Shown: one piece after another, positions 5,069 to 18,882 of the stretch | How the letters are laid out: the number at the start of each line of letters is the position of its first letter | How positions within the stretch are numbered: the first letter of the stretch is position 1 | NCBI RefSeq assembly: GCF_020103725.1 | Contig: NZ_JAHXBG010000028.1 | Location: 62,001 to 126,000, forward strand | Length of the DNA stretch: 64,000 nucleotides | Origin: Hyalangium gracile | Lineage (GTDB): Bacteria > Myxococcota > Myxococcia > Myxococcales > Myxococcaceae | Direction: 5' to 3' | Translations under genes and position numbers: made by a program | The notes under the pieces: model-generated | Told to the model about the DNA's origin: nothing | Databases searched by the model: none | Seen by the model: the letters and a program-made list of their open reading frames with translations, nothing else

Positions 5069-6064
5069 ATGAGCACGGTCCTCGAGCTGGTACTGGAAGC
5101 AGGAGACATCGCCGAGACGCACGCGGATGCGGCGATCTTCAAGTACGCGCAGCGCTTCTATGGAGTGGCCGGAGCGATGGCCAAGAAGCTGGAGGCGGCC
5201 GGCGTGTCCAAGTCCCAGCTCGAGGTGCCTGTCGGGCAGCACCGCTTCGTGGAGACCCGCGGCGCCCTCGGGGCTCCCCTGGCGCTGTTCCTGGGCACCG
5301 TGCGCCTGAGCGAGCTCGGCTACCACGAGCTCCGCCAGCTCGCCGTCCGCGCGCTCCAGGCCCTGGAGTCACGCCAGGGCCTGCGTCACGCCGTCACCAC
5401 GGTCCACGGCCCCAACTACGGGCTGGACGAGGACGAGGCCGCGCTCGCGCTGGTGGGCGGGCTGGTGGAGGCCTTCCAGCGAGGCAGCGGCCCCCAGAGC
5501 CTGGAGCGCATCACCGTGGTGGAGCTGGACCCGGGGCGCGCGCAGCGGCTGCGCAAGGCGCTGGAGCGCGGCCTGGGAGGCACGCCCGGCATCCAGCCTC
5601 TGCCCGGTGGCACGGGCTTCCGCGTCCAACGGATGAACGCCTTCGTCCAGGCCCCGCCGCTGGCCACGGCCGGCACGGTGTCCATGCAGAAGCCGCACGC
5701 CTTCGTGGCCATGGCCTTCGCCCCGGAGCTGGAGGACACCTACCACTACGGCATCCAGGGGCCGGTCCGCGCCGCCGGCCTGCTCTGCGAGCGCGTGGAC
5801 GAGGCCATCTTCGACGGCCCCATCATCCAGCGCATCAAGGAGCGCATCGAGACGGCCAAGGTGGTGATCGCCGACCTGTCCATGGCCAACCCCAACGTCT
5901 ACCTGGAGGTGGGCTACGCCTGGGGCCGGGGGCGGCCCACCGTGCTGCTCGTCCGGGACGTGAAGGAGCTGCGCTTCGACGTGGCCTCGTACCGGTGCAT
6001 CGTCTACCGGAGCATCCGCGAGCTGGAGTCGCTCCTGACGCGCGAGCTGGAGCGAATCGTCTGA
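5069..6064 (+). CDS. Two-domain protein ending in a nucleoside deoxyribosyltransferase/TIR-like domain
   Basis: 331 residues, cytoplasmic. The C-terminal 125 residues start at KPHAFVAMAF and include IIQRIKERIETAKVVIADLS and NPNVYLEVGYAWG. This is the pattern of nucleoside 2-deoxyribosyltransferase-like (TIR-related) domains, with the glutamate of YLEVGYA as the likely catalytic residue. The N-terminal 200 residues contain GPNYGLDEDEAALALVGG, which recalls the macro-like domain seen in leucyl-aminopeptidase N-termini and CHAT-type proteins; this is a weaker call. Such pairings are found in nucleotide-sensing conflict systems, so a defence or NAD/nucleotide-signalling role is possible but unproven. 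The frame is open far upstream, but the ATG at 5069 is the first start not overlapping the divergent gene. Confidence 0.65.
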   Translation: MSTVLELVLEAGDIAETHADAAIFKYAQRFYGVAGAMAKKLEAAGVSKSQLEVPVGQHRFVETRGALGAPLALFLGTVRLSELGYHELRQLAVRALQALESRQGLRHAVTTVHGPNYGLDEDEAALALVGGLVEAFQRGSGPQSLERITVVELDPGRAQRLRKALERGLGGTPGIQPLPGGTGFRVQRMNAFVQAPPLATAGTVSMQKPHAFVAMAFAPELEDTYHYGIQGPVRAAGLLCERVDEAIFDGPIIQRIKERIETAKVVIADLSMANPNVYLEVGYAWGRGRPTVLLVRDVKELRFDVASYRCIVYRSIRELESLLTRELERIV

Positions 6065-6087
6065 GGCGCGGGCTCCGGCGGCCTCAG
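6061..6087. terminator. Inverted repeat spanning both stops of convergent genes
   Basis: CTGAGGC (6061-6067) and GCCTCAG (6081-6087) form a perfect seven-base stem with a 13-base GC-rich loop. The plus gene's TGA (6062-6064) and glgC's TGA (6084-6086 on the complement) lie in opposite arms. It is a plausible bidirectional terminator; no T-run is present. Confidence 0.35.
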
Positions 6088-7331
6088 CCGAACTTGTAGC
6101 CCTTCGGCACGACGACGATGCCGTTCTCGGTGACGGTGAAGCCGCGCGCCTTGTCCTGCTCCAGATCGTGCCCGATCTTCGTGTTGGGCGGCACGCGCAC
6201 TTCCTTGTCGATGATGGCGTTCTTGATCTGCGAGTGCCGACCGATGTCCACGCCCTCGAAGATCACCGAGCGCAGCACCTCCGAGTAGGAGTTCACTCGC
6301 ACCCAGCGGAAGAGGATGCTCTCGCGCACCACGCCGCCGGAGATGATGCAGCCTCCGGCCACCAGCGAGTTGAGCGCCCGGCCCACCCGATCCCCGGACT
6401 CGTGGACGAACTTCGCCGGCGGGCTGTACTCGTTCGCCGTGCGCAGCGGCCAGTCCGGGTTGTACAGGTCGAACTCCGGGTTCACCGAGACCAGGTCCAT
6501 CGAGGCCTCGTGGTACGCCTGCAGCGTCCCCACGTCCCGCCAGTACGTGTTGGGCGTGCTCCGCCCCGGGATGGGGTTGCGCGTGAAGTCATACGTCTGG
6601 ATGTGGTAGCCGTCCTTCAGCGCCTTCGGGAGGATGTTCTTGCCGAAGTCGTGCTGCGAGTCCTTGTTCTGCGCGTCGATCTCCAAGAGGTCCTGCAGCA
6701 CCTGGCGCCGGAAGATGTAGTTGCCCATGCTGGCCAGGGCCATGTCGGGCCGCTCCGGGATCGTCTTCGCGCCCTCCTTGGGCTTCTCCTGGAAGTCCGT
6801 GACGCGGCCCCGCCCGTCCACCTGCATGATGCCGAAGCGCGAGGCCTCGGCCACCGGCACCGGGTAGGCGGCGATGGTGATGTCCGCGCGCTGGCTCTCA
6901 TGCATCTCCTGCATGTGGGCCACGTTCATCTTGTAGATGTGGTCCCCGGAGAAGATGGCCACGTGGTCCGCCTTGTGGTTCTCCACTAGGTGCAGGTTCT
7001 GGTAGATGGCGTCCGCCGTGCCGCGGTACCAGACGGGGCCCAGCTCCTCGAAGCGGTACATCTGCGCCGGCACCAGCGTGATGAAGTAGTCCGCCAGGAA
7101 CGTGCCGAAGCGCCAGCCTCGCTGGATGTGCTCGGTGAGCGACTGCGCCTTGAACTGCGTGAGCACGTAGATGGAGTAGATGCCCGAGTTGATGAAGTTG
7201 TTGAGCGCGAAGTCGATGATGCGGAACTTCGAGCCGAAGGGGACCGCGGGCTTGGAGCGCCGCGACGTCAACGGTGCGAGCCGGGTTCCCTGACCGCCCG
7301 CCAGGATCATTCCAAGGATGCGCTGGGCCAA
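6084..7331 (-). CDS. glgC: Glucose-1-phosphate adenylyltransferase
   Basis: 415 residues, the usual GlgC length. The enzyme makes ADP-glucose from glucose-1-phosphate and ATP, the committed step of glycogen synthesis, in the cytoplasm. The nucleotide-binding motif [20 protein letters not shown] is at residues 7-26, followed by [38 protein letters not shown] and the sugar-phosphate lysine in FQEKP. A left-handed beta-helix tail ends with [11 protein letters not shown] and repeats. Translation starts at a TTG, supported by GGAGGT five bases upstream. No other glg gene is nearby, so it stands alone between a convergent gene and a kinase. Confidence 0.96.
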
Positions 7332-7336
7332 GATCG

Positions 7337-7342
7337 ACCTCC
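7337..7342 (-). promoter_or_regulatory. Strong ribosome binding site fixing the glgC TTG start
   Basis: On the minus strand GGAGGT sits five bases before the TTG at 7331. This supports a TTG initiator, since there is no ATG or GTG in a comparable place. Confidence 0.6.
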
Positions 7343-7416
7343 GGGTGCCGTGTGGAGACGCTGCTGCTGAAGCAGGCCAGATGCAGGAGGATTGACGACT
7401 TGCGGTCGCGCTTCAA

Positions 7417-9105
7417 CTAAACCGTTGGCAGCAGCGAGCTGAGCAGCCGCTCCAGCACCTCGGTCTTGAAGGGCTTGGTGAGGAGCGGATTGCTCATCTT
7501 CGCCACGAACTCCGCCGAGGCGGGGGTGTACGCACCTCCTGTCATGAAGATGACACGACGGGCCAGCTCGGGGGCCTGGAGGCAGAGTGCGTCATAAAAT
7601 TGCTTCCCCGTGACTTCCGCCATCATGAGATCGCACAGGATGGCGTCGTAGCGCCGGCCCGCCTGGAGCCAGCCGAGGGCCTCACGCGCACTGGGGGTGT
7701 AGCTCACCTCGTGGGCCCGGCCCAGCAGCAGCTGGAGCGTCTGCCCGAAGCGGTGCTCGTCATCCACGATGAGGATGCGCCCCCGGGGGGCGACGATGTT
7801 GGGGCCCTGTGCGGCGGGGGCGGGCGCGGGCTCCTCCACGGGAGGGGCGGCCGGCAACCGGATGGAGAAGGTGCTGCCCACGCCCGGGTGGCTCTCCACG
7901 GTGATGGTGCCTCCCAGCTCGGAGACGAGGCTGTGGCTGATGGCCAGCCCCAGCCGCGGGCCCTGGCCCTCCTTCGTCGGGACGAAGAAGGGATCGAAGA
8001 CGCGATCGCGCACCTGGGGGGACATGCCCTCGCCCGTGTCGCGCACCTGCACCAGCACCGACTGCTCCGAGGGCCGGATGCGGAGGCGGACCTCGTTGCG
8101 ATCGGCGGCTCCCTCCGGGATGGAGGCGGCCGCGTTCACCAGCAGGTTGAGGAAGACCTGGCACAGGCGGCCCGCGTCGGCCACGACCTCGGGCACCTTC
8201 ACGTAGTCCCGCACGAGCCGGGCCCGGTGGCGCAGCTCGCCCTGGGCCAGCTTCACGGACAGCTCCAGCACCTGCTGCACGTCCACCCGGCTCGTGCGCG
8301 TCGCGGACGGGAGCGAGAAGCTGGCCAGCCCCTTCATGATGTCCTGGATGCGCTCGGCGCCGTTCTGGGCGTTCGCCAGGGCCTTGAGGGCCGAGCCACT
8401 GGCCCGGGACTCCGGCGCGGTGGCGGCAGCGGGGGACGTGCCGGGCCGGAGCGCCTGGGACGCGATGTCGAGGCTGCTCATGAGGAAGGCCAGCGGGTTG
8501 TTGATCTCGTGCGCGATGCCCGCCGCGATCGTCCCCACGGCCGCCAGCCGCTCCGAGAGGCTGAGCCGGAACTGCACCTGCCGCAGCTCGGTGATGTCCA
8601 TGATGGCGGTCCAGCACAGGCGCTGGGACTGCCACGGGTGGGGGCAGGGCGCGCTGTGCAGCCGGGCCTCGATCCGACTCTCGCCGATGCGCAGCCCCAG
8701 CTCCGTGCTCAGGGTCTCTCCCTCCGCGCAGCGGCGAAGGTGGGCCAGGAAGCGCTGCCGGTCCGCCGGATCCACGAAGGACGAGAAGGGCCGGCCTGGC
8801 AGGCTGGAGCGCTCCTGGCGCAGCATGGCCGCGCCGGTGAGGTTGATCTCGAGGATGAAGCCTCGCTCGTCCAGGCTCACGTAGGCCATGGGCGCGGAGT
8901 CGTAGAGCTCCAGGTAGCGGTTGCGGGCCCCCTCCAGCGCCTGGGTGGTCTCCTGAAGCTGGCGGTTGTGCTCCTCCAGCCCCAGCTGATGCCGCTGAAG
9001 CTCGCGGACCAGGTGTCGGAGCTGCTCCGAGGCCGTGGGATCGGTCTCCAGGGCCTGGAGGGCGCGCGCCAGTTCCGCCCGCGTCATGCCGGCTTCTTCG
9101 CTCAC
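7417..9105 (-). CDS. Hybrid sensor histidine kinase (PAS-HisKA-HATPase-REC)
   Basis: 562 residues from the GTG at 9105, chosen because GGGGA lies five bases upstream; an ATG at 9087 is the alternative. There is no transmembrane segment, so it is a soluble kinase. Order: coiled coil (about 25-60), PAS domain (about 60-175, LYDSAPMAYVSLDERGFILEIN), H-box IAAGIAHEINNPLAF with the phospho-histidine near 199, N-box VFLNLLVNAA, G-box DTGEGM, then a receiver domain starting ILIVDDEHRF with the acceptor aspartate in ILCDLMM and the conserved lysine in LLTKPF. The C-terminal receiver suggests a phosphorelay or feedback control. No partner regulator is adjacent. It is followed by glgC and preceded by the Ser/Thr kinase at 9265, on the same strand. 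Confidence 0.9.
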   Translation of the reverse strand: MSEEAGMTRAELARALQALETDPTASEQLRHLVRELQRHQLGLEEHNRQLQETTQALEGARNRYLELYDSAPMAYVSLDERGFILEINLTGAAMLRQERSSLPGRPFSSFVDPADRQRFLAHLRRCAEGETLSTELGLRIGESRIEARLHSAPCPHPWQSQRLCWTAIMDITELRQVQFRLSLSERLAAVGTIAAGIAHEINNPLAFLMSSLDIASQALRPGTSPAAATAPESRASGSALKALANAQNGAERIQDIMKGLASFSLPSATRTSRVDVQQVLELSVKLAQGELRHRARLVRDYVKVPEVVADAGRLCQVFLNLLVNAAASIPEGAADRNEVRLRIRPSEQSVLVQVRDTGEGMSPQVRDRVFDPFFVPTKEGQGPRLGLAISHSLVSELGGTITVESHPGVGSTFSIRLPAAPPVEEPAPAPAAQGPNIVAPRGRILIVDDEHRFGQTLQLLLGRAHEVSYTPSAREALGWLQAGRRYDAILCDLMMAEVTGKQFYDALCLQAPELARRVIFMTGGAYTPASAEFVAKMSNPLLTKPFKTEVLERLLSSLLPTV

Positions 9106-15564: not shown

Positions 15565-17214
15565 CTACTTCAGGGGCTGGGTGACGAGGGCCTCGGCGAA
15601 GCGCTCGAAGACGCCTGTCGCGGAGAGTGCGGGTTGCTCGTCCATGTTGCCGAGCATCAGGGCGAAGACGACGCGAGGATGCTCCGCGTCATCGGGGCGC
15701 TCGGCGACGCCCACGTAGGCCTTCTGGCTGGAGAGCGTGCCCGTCTTGGCGCGCAGGCGACCGACGGTCTGGGGGGAGGCTCCGCTGCCGGCCAGCGTCC
15801 CATCCACGCCGGAGATGGGCAGGCTGTCCACGAGGGCGGCGGCGTAGGGCTCCTGCAGGCTGGTGAACATCACCTGGGCGAGTCCGTGGGCAGTGGCGAG
15901 GTTGTAGCGCGACAGGCCGCTGCCATCGATGGGGCGTATGTCACGCGGGGAGATGCCGCGGCGTGTCAGCTCGTCCGAGAGGGCCTTGCGCAGATCGCTG
16001 TAACGTTCCCCCCGGGTGCGCTCGCGGGCGAAGCGCAGGGCCAGCCGCTCGGCGTAGAGGTTGAGGGACTCCTTGTTCGTCACCTTCACGAGCTCGGAGA
16101 GCGGCGGGCTGACGAGCTCCAGGAGCGGCTCGGTGGTGGGGCGAGCTGGGACGGGGGTGGGGGTCGACTCTCGGGCCACGGGGGGCGGCAGGTGGGTGAG
16201 GCCACGGCGAGTGAGGGCGTCCTCGACACAGGCAGTGAAGAGGGCCTGGGGATCGGCGGTGGAGAGGCGGGTGGAGTGGGTGCGAGGGCACTGCTTGGAG
16301 GAGGAGCGCCACACGCAGCGCACCTGCGAGGAGTTGTGCTCGCGCAGGCAGGCGAAGCCGGACCGGGAGCCGCTGGTGTCGAGCTGGACGAGGGCGGGGA
16401 ACGGCGCGAAGCGGGGGGAGAGCAGGACGGTGGGTTGGGCAGAGCAGGCGGCGCCGTCGGCGCGGAGCAGGGTGACGTCGACCACGTTCTCGCGGAAGAC
16501 GAACGGCATGGGCATGGCGCTCATGGAGTAGGCGGCGTCATCCCAGGCCCAGCCGGGGCCGAGTGGCCCATCCAGTCCGGTGTCGGGCGTCTTCAGCTGG
16601 AGCGAGCCCTTCCAGCGGCGGATGCCGCGGCCCCACAGCGCCTCGGCGATCTGGTCGCAGGCCTGAGAAGTCTCCGGGAAGCGCCACGAGCCCAGCGAGG
16701 GGTCTCCCGAGGACTCCACGACGAGATCGCCCTCGAAGAGGTCGCCCTTGTGGTTGCCCATGAGGGCCACGGGCGTGCGGAAGCGGAAGTCTGGCCCGAA
16801 CGCGGAGAGCGCCGCGGAGGTGGAGACGATCTTCATCGTCGAGGCCGGGAGCGTGCGGACGTGCTCGCGGTGGGCGTAGAGCGGCGCGCCCGTCCGGGCA
16901 TCCAGGACGATGACGCTCGTGAGGGCGCCCTCGTCCTCGACGGCGGTGAGGAGGGCATCGGCGGTCTGCGCGAACGTCGCCTGGGAAGCCGGCTGGGAGG
17001 GACGAACCGCGCGAGGACACCCCGAGAGCGCGAGGGCCGTGAGCAGGAGCGAGGCGAGCGGGAAGAGGGACCGGTCAGAAAGAACGAGGGTACAGCGCCG
17101 CAGTACCAGGTCAGGACCCAGGTAGTAGCGGGTGTTCCTGGCACCAAGCTCGAGCCGCTCGCCCTCCAAGGTCTTGTCCTTGAAGATGACGTTATCGGGA
17201 TAGTCGGAGTGCAT
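15565..17214 (-). CDS. dacB: D-alanyl-D-alanine carboxypeptidase/endopeptidase (PBP4, S13)
   Basis: Open for 549 residues. The S13 motifs are present: STMK at 125-128 (nucleophile Ser125), DGSGLSRYN later and AKTGTLSS near the C-terminus. The enzyme trims or cleaves D-Ala crosslinks of peptidoglycan in the periplasm. A lipobox, ALALSGC, puts the lipidated cysteine at 66, so a normal start would lie near residue 45-48. No ATG, GTG or TTG exists there in frame. The only starts are the ATG at 17214 and a TTG at 17169, both inside a stretch that looks like the N-terminus of an immunity protein. The gene thus seems to have lost its own start and gained one by recombination. Whether the long n-region still allows export is uncertain. 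Confidence 0.88.
   Translation of the reverse strand: MHSDYPDNVIFKDKTLEGERLELGARNTRYYLGPDLVLRRCTLVLSDRSLFPLASLLLTALALSGCPRAVRPSQPASQATFAQTADALLTAVEDEGALTSVIVLDARTGAPLYAHREHVRTLPASTMKIVSTSAALSAFGPDFRFRTPVALMGNHKGDLFEGDLVVESSGDPSLGSWRFPETSQACDQIAEALWGRGIRRWKGSLQLKTPDTGLDGPLGPGWAWDDAAYSMSAMPMPFVFRENVVDVTLLRADGAACSAQPTVLLSPRFAPFPALVQLDTSGSRSGFACLREHNSSQVRCVWRSSSKQCPRTHSTRLSTADPQALFTACVEDALTRRGLTHLPPPVARESTPTPVPARPTTEPLLELVSPPLSELVKVTNKESLNLYAERLALRFARERTRGERYSDLRKALSDELTRRGISPRDIRPIDGSGLSRYNLATAHGLAQVMFTSLQEPYAAALVDSLPISGVDGTLAGSGASPQTVGRLRAKTGTLSSQKAYVGVAERPDDAEHPRVVFALMLGNMDEQPALSATGVFERFAEALVTQPLK
17080..17214 (-). pseudogene. N-terminal stub of an immunity gene, fused in frame to dacB
   Basis: The first 45 codons of the dacB frame do not resemble an export signal or S13 protein: MHSDYPDNVIFKDKTLEGER, then GARNTRYYLGPDLVLRRC. 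I recall this as the start of a myxobacterial immunity-protein family that follows SitA-type toxins, normally about 200 residues. Its start lies 12 bases after the stop of the toxin stub at 17227, the spacing expected of a toxin/immunity pair. The similarity ends abruptly at about codon 46, where the dacB signal peptide begins. Confidence 0.55.
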
Positions 17215-17226
17215 GCCCTCTGCCCC

Positions 17227-17508
17227 TCAGAAGCCGATCATCCGGAACAGTTCATCCGCCATGCGCCGACCATGTCTGGCCATGTTCGACTCTGTCTGGG
17301 TGAGGATCTCGTACTTGATTCCAGTGGTGGGATCGACCGCGTCGACCCCTCTGTGTTTCCACTGCAGGTGCGGGAACTCTTCCTTCAGTTGAGTGTGCAC
17401 ATAACGCCCCCGCGCCTCTGCCTCCAGGAGATTCGCCTTCCAGTACTCACCTTTGGCTCTGGCGGTCTCAGCCCAGAGCCGCGGAGAAGAGAGGGTACCC
17501 TGCCGCAC
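17227..17508 (-). pseudogene. C-terminal toxin stub of a second polymorphic toxin locus
   Basis: A 93-codon frame lacking any signal or delivery region. Its content (ETARAKGEYWKANLLEAEAR, FPHLQWKHRGVDAVDP, TGIKYEILTQTESNMARHGR) matches my recollection of the C-terminal toxin module of SitA-like proteins. A full toxin would have about 400 residues before it; instead the adenylate cyclase gene ends 15 bases away. The region is visibly less GC-rich than its neighbours. The ATG at 17508 lies beyond the point where toxin-like sequence appears to begin, so translation may not occur. Confidence 0.6.
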
Positions 17509-17523
17509 CCTTGTTCTCAGGGA

Positions 17524-18882
17524 TCAGGTCGTCGAGGTGCCCGGCTCGCGCAGCCCGGTCAGGAACCAGGTCTTCACCCGGCCGATGCTCTTCATCTCCG
17601 TCTCCCCGCGCGGCTCGAAGGTGAAGCGATCCTGCAGCGCCTGCCGGGTCGCCTCCCGCACGTGGATGCGACCCGCCACTCCGTGGGACTCCAGTCGACT
17701 GGCCATGTTCACCGTGTCGCCCCACAAGTCGTAGGCGAACTTGCGCGTGCCGATGATGCCCGCCACCACCGGTCCGCTGTGCATCCCGATCCGCAGGTCC
17801 AACGACGTGCCCAGCACCTGGTTCAGCCGCTGGATGGCCTCCATCATCTGGAGCGCCATCCGCGCCATCACCTCGAGGTGATCGCCGCGCGGCGCCGGGA
17901 CTCCCGCCACCACCATGTACGCATCCCCGATCGTCTTGATCTTCTCCAGCCCGTAGCGCTCCGTCAGGGCGTCGAACTCCGTGAACACCTGCCCCAGGAT
18001 CTCCACCACGTGCTCGGGCGGCAGCAGCATCGACCAGCGCGTGAAGTCCACCAGATCCGCGAACAGCACCGTCACGTCCTCGAACCGCTCGGCGATCGCC
18101 TGCTCCCCCTTCTTGAGCCGCTCGACGATGGAGTGGGGCAGGATGTTGAGCAGCAGCCGCTCGGAGCGCTGGGTGGCCTCGGACAGCTCCTGGGTCCGCT
18201 CGGTGATGCGCGCCTCCAGCAGCCGGTTCGCATCCCTCAGCTGCGTGTCCAGCAGGGCCTGCGTCACCCGCGCCGCCGTCATGGACGCCACCGTCGTGAG
18301 GATGTGCAGGTGCTCCTCCGTGAAGAACCCCTCCCTCGAGTGCTCCGAGTCCAGCACTCCGATCACCGCCCCCTGCGAGAAGATGGGCAGCGCCAGCTCC
18401 GACAGCCGCGCCTGATCGTCCTGGATGTAGCGCGGATCCTTCCGGGTGTCGGAGATGAGCTCCGCCCGCCCCGTCAGCGCCACCGTGCCGACGATCCCCG
18501 CCCCCGGCTTGATGAGGATGGGCGCCAGGATCTCCCGCTCCCGGGGATTCTTCGGCCCGAAGGCCGCTCGCTGCACGAGGTTCTCGCGCCGCTCGTCGAA
18601 CAGGTAGATGACGCAGTCCTCCAGCCCCAGGTGGGCCACCGCCCCCTGCGCCACCTCCCACAGGATGTCGTCCACGTCCGTCTGCGACTGGAGCAGCGAC
18701 GCGGCCAGGTGGTTGATGACATCCAGGCTGCGCGCCTTGGCCTCCAGCTCGCGGACACGCCGCTCCAGCGCCCGCTTCTCGTCCTGGAGCGGAGCCGTCT
18801 CGGAGGTGGGGCTGTCTGGCGAAACTGGAGGGCGAGACATACGGCTGACACATCGTCTCACTTCAACCCGGCTCTCCGCCAT
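17524..18882 (-). CDS. GAF-domain adenylate cyclase (class III)
   Basis: 452 residues, soluble. A coiled coil (about 30-55) precedes a GAF domain (about 60-225), then a helical linker (TQLRDANRLLEARITERTQE) and a class III cyclase domain (about 270-445). Metal-binding aspartates are in VLFADLVDFT. The purine-selecting pair looks like that of adenylate cyclases: Lys in EKIKTIGDAYM and Asp in YDLWGD. The transition-state Asn/Arg pair is in VNMASRLES. It should make cAMP in response to a small ligand or redox state sensed by GAF. An internal ATG at 18840 is an alternative start. It ends immediately beside the toxin stub. Confidence 0.92.
   Translation of the reverse strand: MAESRVEVRRCVSRMSRPPVSPDSPTSETAPLQDEKRALERRVRELEAKARSLDVINHLAASLLQSQTDVDDILWEVAQGAVAHLGLEDCVIYLFDERRENLVQRAAFGPKNPREREILAPILIKPGAGIVGTVALTGRAELISDTRKDPRYIQDDQARLSELALPIFSQGAVIGVLDSEHSREGFFTEEHLHILTTVASMTAARVTQALLDTQLRDANRLLEARITERTQELSEATQRSERLLLNILPHSIVERLKKGEQAIAERFEDVTVLFADLVDFTRWSMLLPPEHVVEILGQVFTEFDALTERYGLEKIKTIGDAYMVVAGVPAPRGDHLEVMARMALQMMEAIQRLNQVLGTSLDLRIGMHSGPVVAGIIGTRKFAYDLWGDTVNMASRLESHGVAGRIHVREATRQALQDRFTFEPRGETEMKSIGRVKTWFLTGLREPGTSTT

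What the first reader, a model, noticed from the sequence alone, without database searches (positions are those of the whole stretch)
17080..17508. Relics of a second toxin/immunity cassette trapped between adenylate cyclase and dacB
A signal-less 93-codon toxin end is followed 12 bases later by the first 45 codons of what looks like its immunity gene. Both ends are cut by housekeeping genes. This suggests a toxin locus was inserted and then mostly deleted, and marks the site as a recombination hot spot.
Basis: partly seen in the sequence, partly recalled or inferred. Interest (0 to 1): 0.72.

Follow-up and report, generated by a model that had tools for sequence, protein, structure and literature searches.

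The report
Dead toxin-immunity cassette fused to dacB
Between two ordinary genes of a social soil bacterium lies the broken end of a kin-recognition toxin and the first quarter of its antidote gene, and the antidote's start signal now seems to be the only one left for the neighbouring cell-wall enzyme; it is a genuine genetic fossil, but of a known toxin family.

Summary
On the minus strand the 93-codon ORF (17508-17227) holds the last ~79 codons of a SitA5-family lipoprotein toxin, and the dacB frame opens (17214-17080) with the first 45 codons of its immunity gene. One intact cassette in Hyalangium versicolor is the best relative of both halves (86% DNA identity, 386 columns). Seven fuller cassettes and one other wreck lie in the same genome. 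The relic lacks signal peptide, lipobox, escort domain and ~165 immunity codons, so it is not a working pair. In two relatives cyclase and dacB are directly adjacent; in H. versicolor the same junction holds two unrelated lipoprotein gene pairs. 'Hot spot' therefore rests on two different occupants among four genomes. Insertion followed by deletion, or capture of a fragment, cannot be told apart. New member of a known kind.

The parts
17524..18882 (-). GAF plus adenylate/guanylate cyclase gene; its last codons differ from relatives and its stop now lies at the junction
   Evidence: Pfam PF00211 4.7e-60, GAF; ends compared with G002, G020, G006
17467..17535 (-). degenerate toxin-gene DNA with indels, joined to ancestral-looking intergenic DNA around 17520-17535; reads out of toxin frame
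   Evidence: pairwise alignments with intact cassette L184 and with empty sites; the exact join is inference
17230..17466 (-). last 79 codons of a SitA5-family toxin C-terminal domain, in frame; 27 of 28 strongly conserved columns kept from codon 14 on
17227..17508 (-). the 93-codon ORF as listed (GTG start fortuitous, stop genuine)
17215..17226 (-). 12-base spacer with GGGGCAGAGGG ribosome-binding-like sequence before the immunity ATG
17080..17214 (-). first 45 codons of the SitI5-type immunity gene (full relatives ~195-210 aa), in frame with dacB
15565..17079 (-). dacB (PBP4-type D-Ala-D-Ala carboxypeptidase, lipoprotein-like signal at its head) without its own start codon
   Evidence: TIGR00666 3.4e-51 and PF02113 2.2e-64; start codon comparison

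Best explanation
It is the wreck of a sitAI5 kin-discrimination cassette of myxobacteria. An intact SitA5 is an outer-membrane lipoprotein with an N-terminal escort domain and a C-terminal toxin domain, passed between cells by outer membrane exchange and neutralised by its SitI partner (published). Here only most of the toxin domain and the first 45 codons of the immunity gene remain. The toxin part has no signal peptide, lipobox or escort domain and cannot be delivered; the immunity part is too short to neutralise anything. The collapse also removed dacB's own start codon and fused dacB in frame to the immunity gene's start, so dacB is most likely translated from the immunity ATG at 17214 as a 549-residue protein with a 45-residue foreign head, or is poorly expressed. 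Shown: homology, approximate breakpoints, missing start codon, empty sites in relatives. Inferred: loss of toxin and immunity activity, use of the captured start, order of events.
For: Seven full-length paralogues and one other wreck in the same genome, each with its immunity partner. Three of the seven were scanned and all three match SitA5_escort NF050093 above its 160-bit cut-off, as does the H. versicolor cassette L184 (214-277 bits). That cassette in G006 is the best relative of both halves: toxin 81%, immunity 84%, DNA 86% over 386 columns. 27 of 28 strongly conserved toxin columns kept. Empty junctions of 46 and 51 bases in G002 and G020. The only ATG/GTG/TTG codons in frame ahead of the DacB signal sequence are ATG 17214 and TTG 17169; the rarer candidates ATC 17187 and CTG 17121, 17109 and 17103 are likewise in immunity DNA. 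dS from relic to the G006 cassette is 0.46, as for dacB (0.47) and cyclase (0.47) between the same two genomes, with dN/dS 0.21, so most of its history was as a working gene.
Against: The remaining toxin frame is clean and its conserved residues are nearly all kept, which a long-dead gene would not show; a residual function or a recent death fits too. Polarised with outgroup L147, the relic branch has about 9.9 non-synonymous and 9.1 synonymous changes against 6.6 and 9.4 on the G006 branch (my arithmetic): no clear relaxation. dacB itself stays open, with dN/dS 0.25-0.40 in the three pairs that include the window against 0.26-0.35 in the three that do not, so no clear sign of decay. Use of the captured start was not measured.
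Confidence: 0.85

Rival explanations
1. Fragment capture: no whole cassette was ever inserted here. A ~450-base piece (toxin end plus immunity start) was joined into the cyclase-dacB junction by illegitimate recombination in one step.
For: Only one contiguous piece remains, and the left join lies in a short CGAC-type similarity shared by the empty site and the toxin gene (by eye). No escort-domain DNA was found in the junction.
Against: At the same junction G006 carries whole genes, two tandem lipoprotein pairs. The second wreck in this genome (C16) and a G006 copy (C16) show that decay by internal deletion occurs.
Confidence: 0.35
2. Retained module: the toxin end is kept as a silent or orphan toxin-domain module that can be swapped into SitA5 genes by recombination, or the fragment is still selected.
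For: The left break falls near the DPVGDxL segment, shared by most of the 36 aligned homologues, just upstream of the toxin domain; conserved residues are kept. Modularity of SitA5 toxin domains is published (PMC8546572, passages).
Against: The immunity gene is destroyed, so a swap would give an unprotected toxin; the 5' end of the toxin domain is out of frame; the two neighbouring genes are not SitA genes.
Confidence: 0.08
3. Adaptive fusion: the 45-residue immunity head on DacB has a function, such as a new localisation or regulation.
For: In-frame fusion, open dacB frame, dacB dN/dS not clearly raised.
Against: An in-frame outcome has a one-in-three chance and would be needed for any dacB expression; the head places about 48-50 residues before the hydrophobic signal; a second S13 carboxypeptidase gene exists.
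Confidence: 0.08
4. dacB is on the way out: the fusion blocks export or expression and the paralogue on contig C6 does the work.
For: Own start lost; a second, stronger S13 match in the genome (335.6 against 218.7 bits).
Against: No stop or frameshift in dacB, and dN/dS not clearly raised.
Confidence: 0.25

Closest known systems
SitA5 polymorphic lipoprotein toxins with SitI immunity (NCBIfam NF050093; PMC5562445, PMC8546572, passages seen)
   Same: Toxin C-terminal domain and immunity start homologous to complete cassettes whose N-termini match SitA5_escort; same gene order
   Different: No signal peptide, lipobox or escort domain; immunity cut to 45 codons; not deliverable
sitAI5 wrecks and orphan SitI5 genes elsewhere (G000 C16; G006 C16 and C54)
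   Same: Damaged or missing toxin partners beside SitI5 genes
   Different: Both G006 copies keep a complete 209-aa immunity gene; of these only the window copy is fused to a housekeeping gene
Tandem lipoprotein pairs (283+171 and 277+181 aa) at the same junction in Hyalangium versicolor
   Same: Same insertion point; variable, multi-copy family (17 matches in G006; 44 of 96 genomes at E <= 1e-8)
   Different: Unrelated sequence; no curated family above cut-off; toxin role not shown

Membership tests
SitA5 toxin | N-terminal lipobox signal and SitA5 escort domain | tested here: not met
   Relic has no NCBIfam or Pfam match; the homologues scanned have the escort domain
SitA5 toxin | C-terminal modular toxin domain like that of SitA5 members | tested here: met
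   81% to the G006 cassette and 51-60% to seven own paralogues; 27 of 28 conserved columns from codon 14; first ~14 codons out of frame
SitA5 toxin | Cognate immunity gene directly downstream | tested here: inconclusive
   Homologous start present, only 45 of ~195-210 codons
SitA5 toxin | TraAB-dependent transfer and killing | not testable with these tools
   needs cells
SitI5-type immunity protein | full-length immunity protein | tested here: not met
   45 codons remain; full relatives only weakly resemble pentapeptide repeats, below Pfam cut-offs
DacB/PBP4 (Peptidase_S13) | S13 domain over its cut-off | tested here: met
   TIGR00666 174.2 bits against cut-off 107.8; PF02113 218.3 against 22.8
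DacB/PBP4 (Peptidase_S13) | own start codon at the head of the signal sequence, as in G002, G020 and G006 | tested here: not met

The most novel reading that the evidence does not exclude
The 5' end of dacB is a repeat landing site where kin-discrimination lipoprotein cassettes accrete by recombination. H. versicolor carries two gene pairs with a ~35-base near-copy of dacB's 5' end between them as a scar. In the window genome one such cassette collapsed and handed its immunity gene's start codon and first 45 codons to a cell-wall enzyme.
Probability: 0.25. Interest if true: 0.55.

Novelty: new member of a known kind. Interest (0 to 1): 0.36.

Why it matters
Myxobacteria carry tens of sitAI loci that define social identity (PMC8546572, passage: 25-80 per genome). 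This junction shows several states of gain and loss side by side in related genomes: empty, occupied by other gene pairs, and collapsed. It also offers a testable case of an antidote gene's start being taken over by a housekeeping gene.

Tried and rejected
Chance ORF: rejected. Parts of cyclase or DacB in relatives: rejected; the relatives' junctions lack them. Toxin class: no Pfam or NCBIfam match at E <= 1, no convincing PDB relative by profile (best E 0.081). A single-sequence model had mean pLDDT 68.8 and its fold search gave no match at E <= 0.001, so I claim no nuclease class. Original home of the cassette: the G006 cassette sits beside a gene (L184:3301-5307) whose G000 homologue has a different SitA5-like stretch next to it (about 32% identity over the escort region, not confirmed by a family scan), while the fetched G004 and G020 regions show no SitA5 or SitI5 match above 60 bits and G002 has no match to that gene; this did not tell where the relic came from. 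Weaker cyclase relatives in Archangium and related MAGs (L068-L071) have no DacB match above 120 bits in the fetched stretch. The 2019 SitA survey (recalled from memory) was not held, so I cannot say whether its authors saw such relics. Paper searches (titles and abstract starts seen) name no such relic in myxobacteria, but most journals are not held.

Full report
What is there. The minus strand reads: cyclase gene (18882-17524), a 93-codon ORF (17508-17227), 12 bases, then a 549-codon frame (17214-15565) whose body is dacB. Pfam and NCBIfam name the flanking genes (PF00211 and GAF; TIGR00666 and PF02113) but find nothing at E <= 1 in the ORF or in the first 45 codons of the dacB frame.

Homology. 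In the same genome (G000) the ORF matches nine places including itself at E <= 7e-12. Seven are ends of open frames of 501-574 aa, 51-60% identical; one is a short remnant on contig C16 (three weaker hits at E 0.5-0.8 were disregarded). The 45-residue piece matches the same nine places, directly downstream (the weakest at E 0.017; a tenth hit at E 0.18 disregarded). In all 38 toxin loci then held (window relic and C16 wreck included; loci of the best matches only), the immunity match lies just behind the toxin end. Three of the seven own full-length toxins were scanned and all three match NCBIfam SitA5_escort above its cut-off, as does the closest cassette in G006. In 96 family genomes the toxin end occurs in 27 (E <= 1e-6) and the immunity piece in 27 (E <= 0.01); the two sets differ slightly (for example G005 has only the immunity match, G095 only the toxin match).

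One cassette, both halves. The best relative of both halves is a single intact cassette in G006, contig C68 (toxin 81%, immunity 84%). DNA identity is 85.8% over 386 columns, from window 17464 to 17080. I equate G006 with Hyalangium versicolor H56D21 because the contig length (741,390) and gene content agree. Synonymous divergence between relic and that cassette (dS 0.46) equals that of dacB (0.47) and cyclase (0.47) between the two genomes, and dN/dS is 0.21. I infer that the two alleles are about as old as the species split and that the relic spent most of that time as a working gene. The relic branch shows only a weak excess of amino-acid changes (my three-point arithmetic, outgroup L147: 9.9 N and 9.1 S against 6.6 N and 9.4 S).

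What is broken. From codon 14 on the relic keeps 27 of 28 columns that are at least 90% conserved in 36 homologues; five further conserved columns lie upstream and are absent, and two in the first 13 codons are changed. Upstream of about 17466 the DNA still aligns loosely with the toxin gene, with indels, back to about 17535, where it meets sequence resembling the empty junction of G002 and G020. The GTG start and first ~14 codons are therefore most likely not the toxin's own reading frame, and signal peptide, lipobox and escort domain are missing. The immunity gene is cut at codon 45 of ~195-210.

Empty and occupied sites. The cyclase orthologue exists in 4 of 96 family genomes at E <= 1e-150. 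In G002 and G020 it is separated from dacB by 46 and 51 bases. In G006 the same junction holds 2.85 kb with two tandem pairs of lipoprotein genes, about 60-62% identical to each other. They match no family above cut-off, but relatives of the first gene occur in 44 of 96 genomes at E <= 1e-8, with 17 matches in G006. Between the two pairs lies a ~35-base near-copy of dacB's 5' end. That match is modest (blastn E 0.016 for its 27-base core, between two cut-outs that also share a trivial overlap of my making), so accretion by recombination at the head of dacB is a suggestion, not a result. Of 59 genomes searched, 18, the window's own included, have a DacB match at E <= 1e-60; I fetched 16 of the other 17 (G009, at a contig end, left out). 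In 15 of these 16 no SitA5, SitI5 or gA-gD match was found near dacB; only G006 had any, of the gA-gD kind. In four same-genus genomes without the cyclase, dacB follows another gene that in G002 lies upstream of the cyclase (judged by eye from the protein starts). The site is variable, but 'hot spot' rests on two occupied junctions out of four, and a shared ancestral insertion is not excluded.

What it does to dacB. In G002, G020 and G006 dacB starts with an ATG right before its lipoprotein-like signal sequence. In the window this ATG is gone. The only ATG, GTG or TTG codons in frame before the signal are ATG 17214, with a GGGGCAGAGGG stretch just upstream, and TTG 17169; rarer candidate starts (ATC 17187, CTG 17121, 17109, 17103) also lie in immunity DNA. 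The likely product is DacB with a 45-residue SitI5 head. A second S13 gene on contig C6 may cover for it. dacB shows no clear decay yet (dN/dS 0.25-0.40 with the window, 0.26-0.35 among the other genomes).

Context of decay. Such wrecks are not unique. The C16 remnant in G000 has a cut toxin and an immunity gene with an internal deletion and frameshift. In G006, contig C16 keeps a toxin gene reduced to its start and end before an intact 209-aa SitI5; contig C54 has an intact SitI5 behind an AHH-type SitA5 cassette. Of the 150 toxin matches printed (my count; the tool cut the list), the window's included, lie in open frames under 300 aa; at least three of these start within 400 bases of a contig start and may be cut by assembly.

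Literature. From passages of PMC5562445 and PMC8546572 and part 1 of 2 of PMC12077181: SitA toxins are outer-membrane lipoproteins exchanged between cells, with family-defining escort domains and modular toxin domains; sitAI loci typically number 25-80 per genome and frequently lie on mobile DNA. PMC8546572 calls the toxin domains nucleases; for this domain I found no evidence of class.

Verdict. The insertion-then-deletion history is one of two open routes, and the hot-spot claim is modestly supported. The most interesting part is the loss of dacB's own start.

Noticed in passing
Toxin and escort domain are in different frames, so the toxin looks frameshifted while the immunity gene is whole.
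   Followed up: partly
L031 (G000 C16:51000-63000), about 5977-6560: Second sitAI5 wreck in the same genome: toxin end only, immunity gene with internal deletion and frameshift.
   Followed up: partly
L050:4427-7256: Two tandem pairs of lipoprotein genes (first genes with weak DUF4329- or JAB-like signals below cut-off; HSHP seen in the first) at the cyclase-dacB junction of Hyalangium versicolor; multi-copy and variable in the family, possibly an undescribed toxin/immunity pair.
   Followed up: partly
L185:4874-5650 and L186:5403-6032 (G006): Intact SitI5 genes without an intact toxin of their kind; in L185 the toxin gene is reduced to about its first 30 and last 37 codons, apparently by an internal deletion.
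   Followed up: partly
G000 C19 against G006 C68 (L192, L184): Beside the same conserved gene the two species carry different SitA5-like sequences, so cassettes at fixed sites may be exchanged; the G000 one held a stop in the stretch tried.
   Followed up: no
L025:4642-8314 (G000 C37): SitAI5 cassette followed by another ORF (7193-8314) with a SitA-like lipoprotein opening, near the contig end.
   Followed up: no
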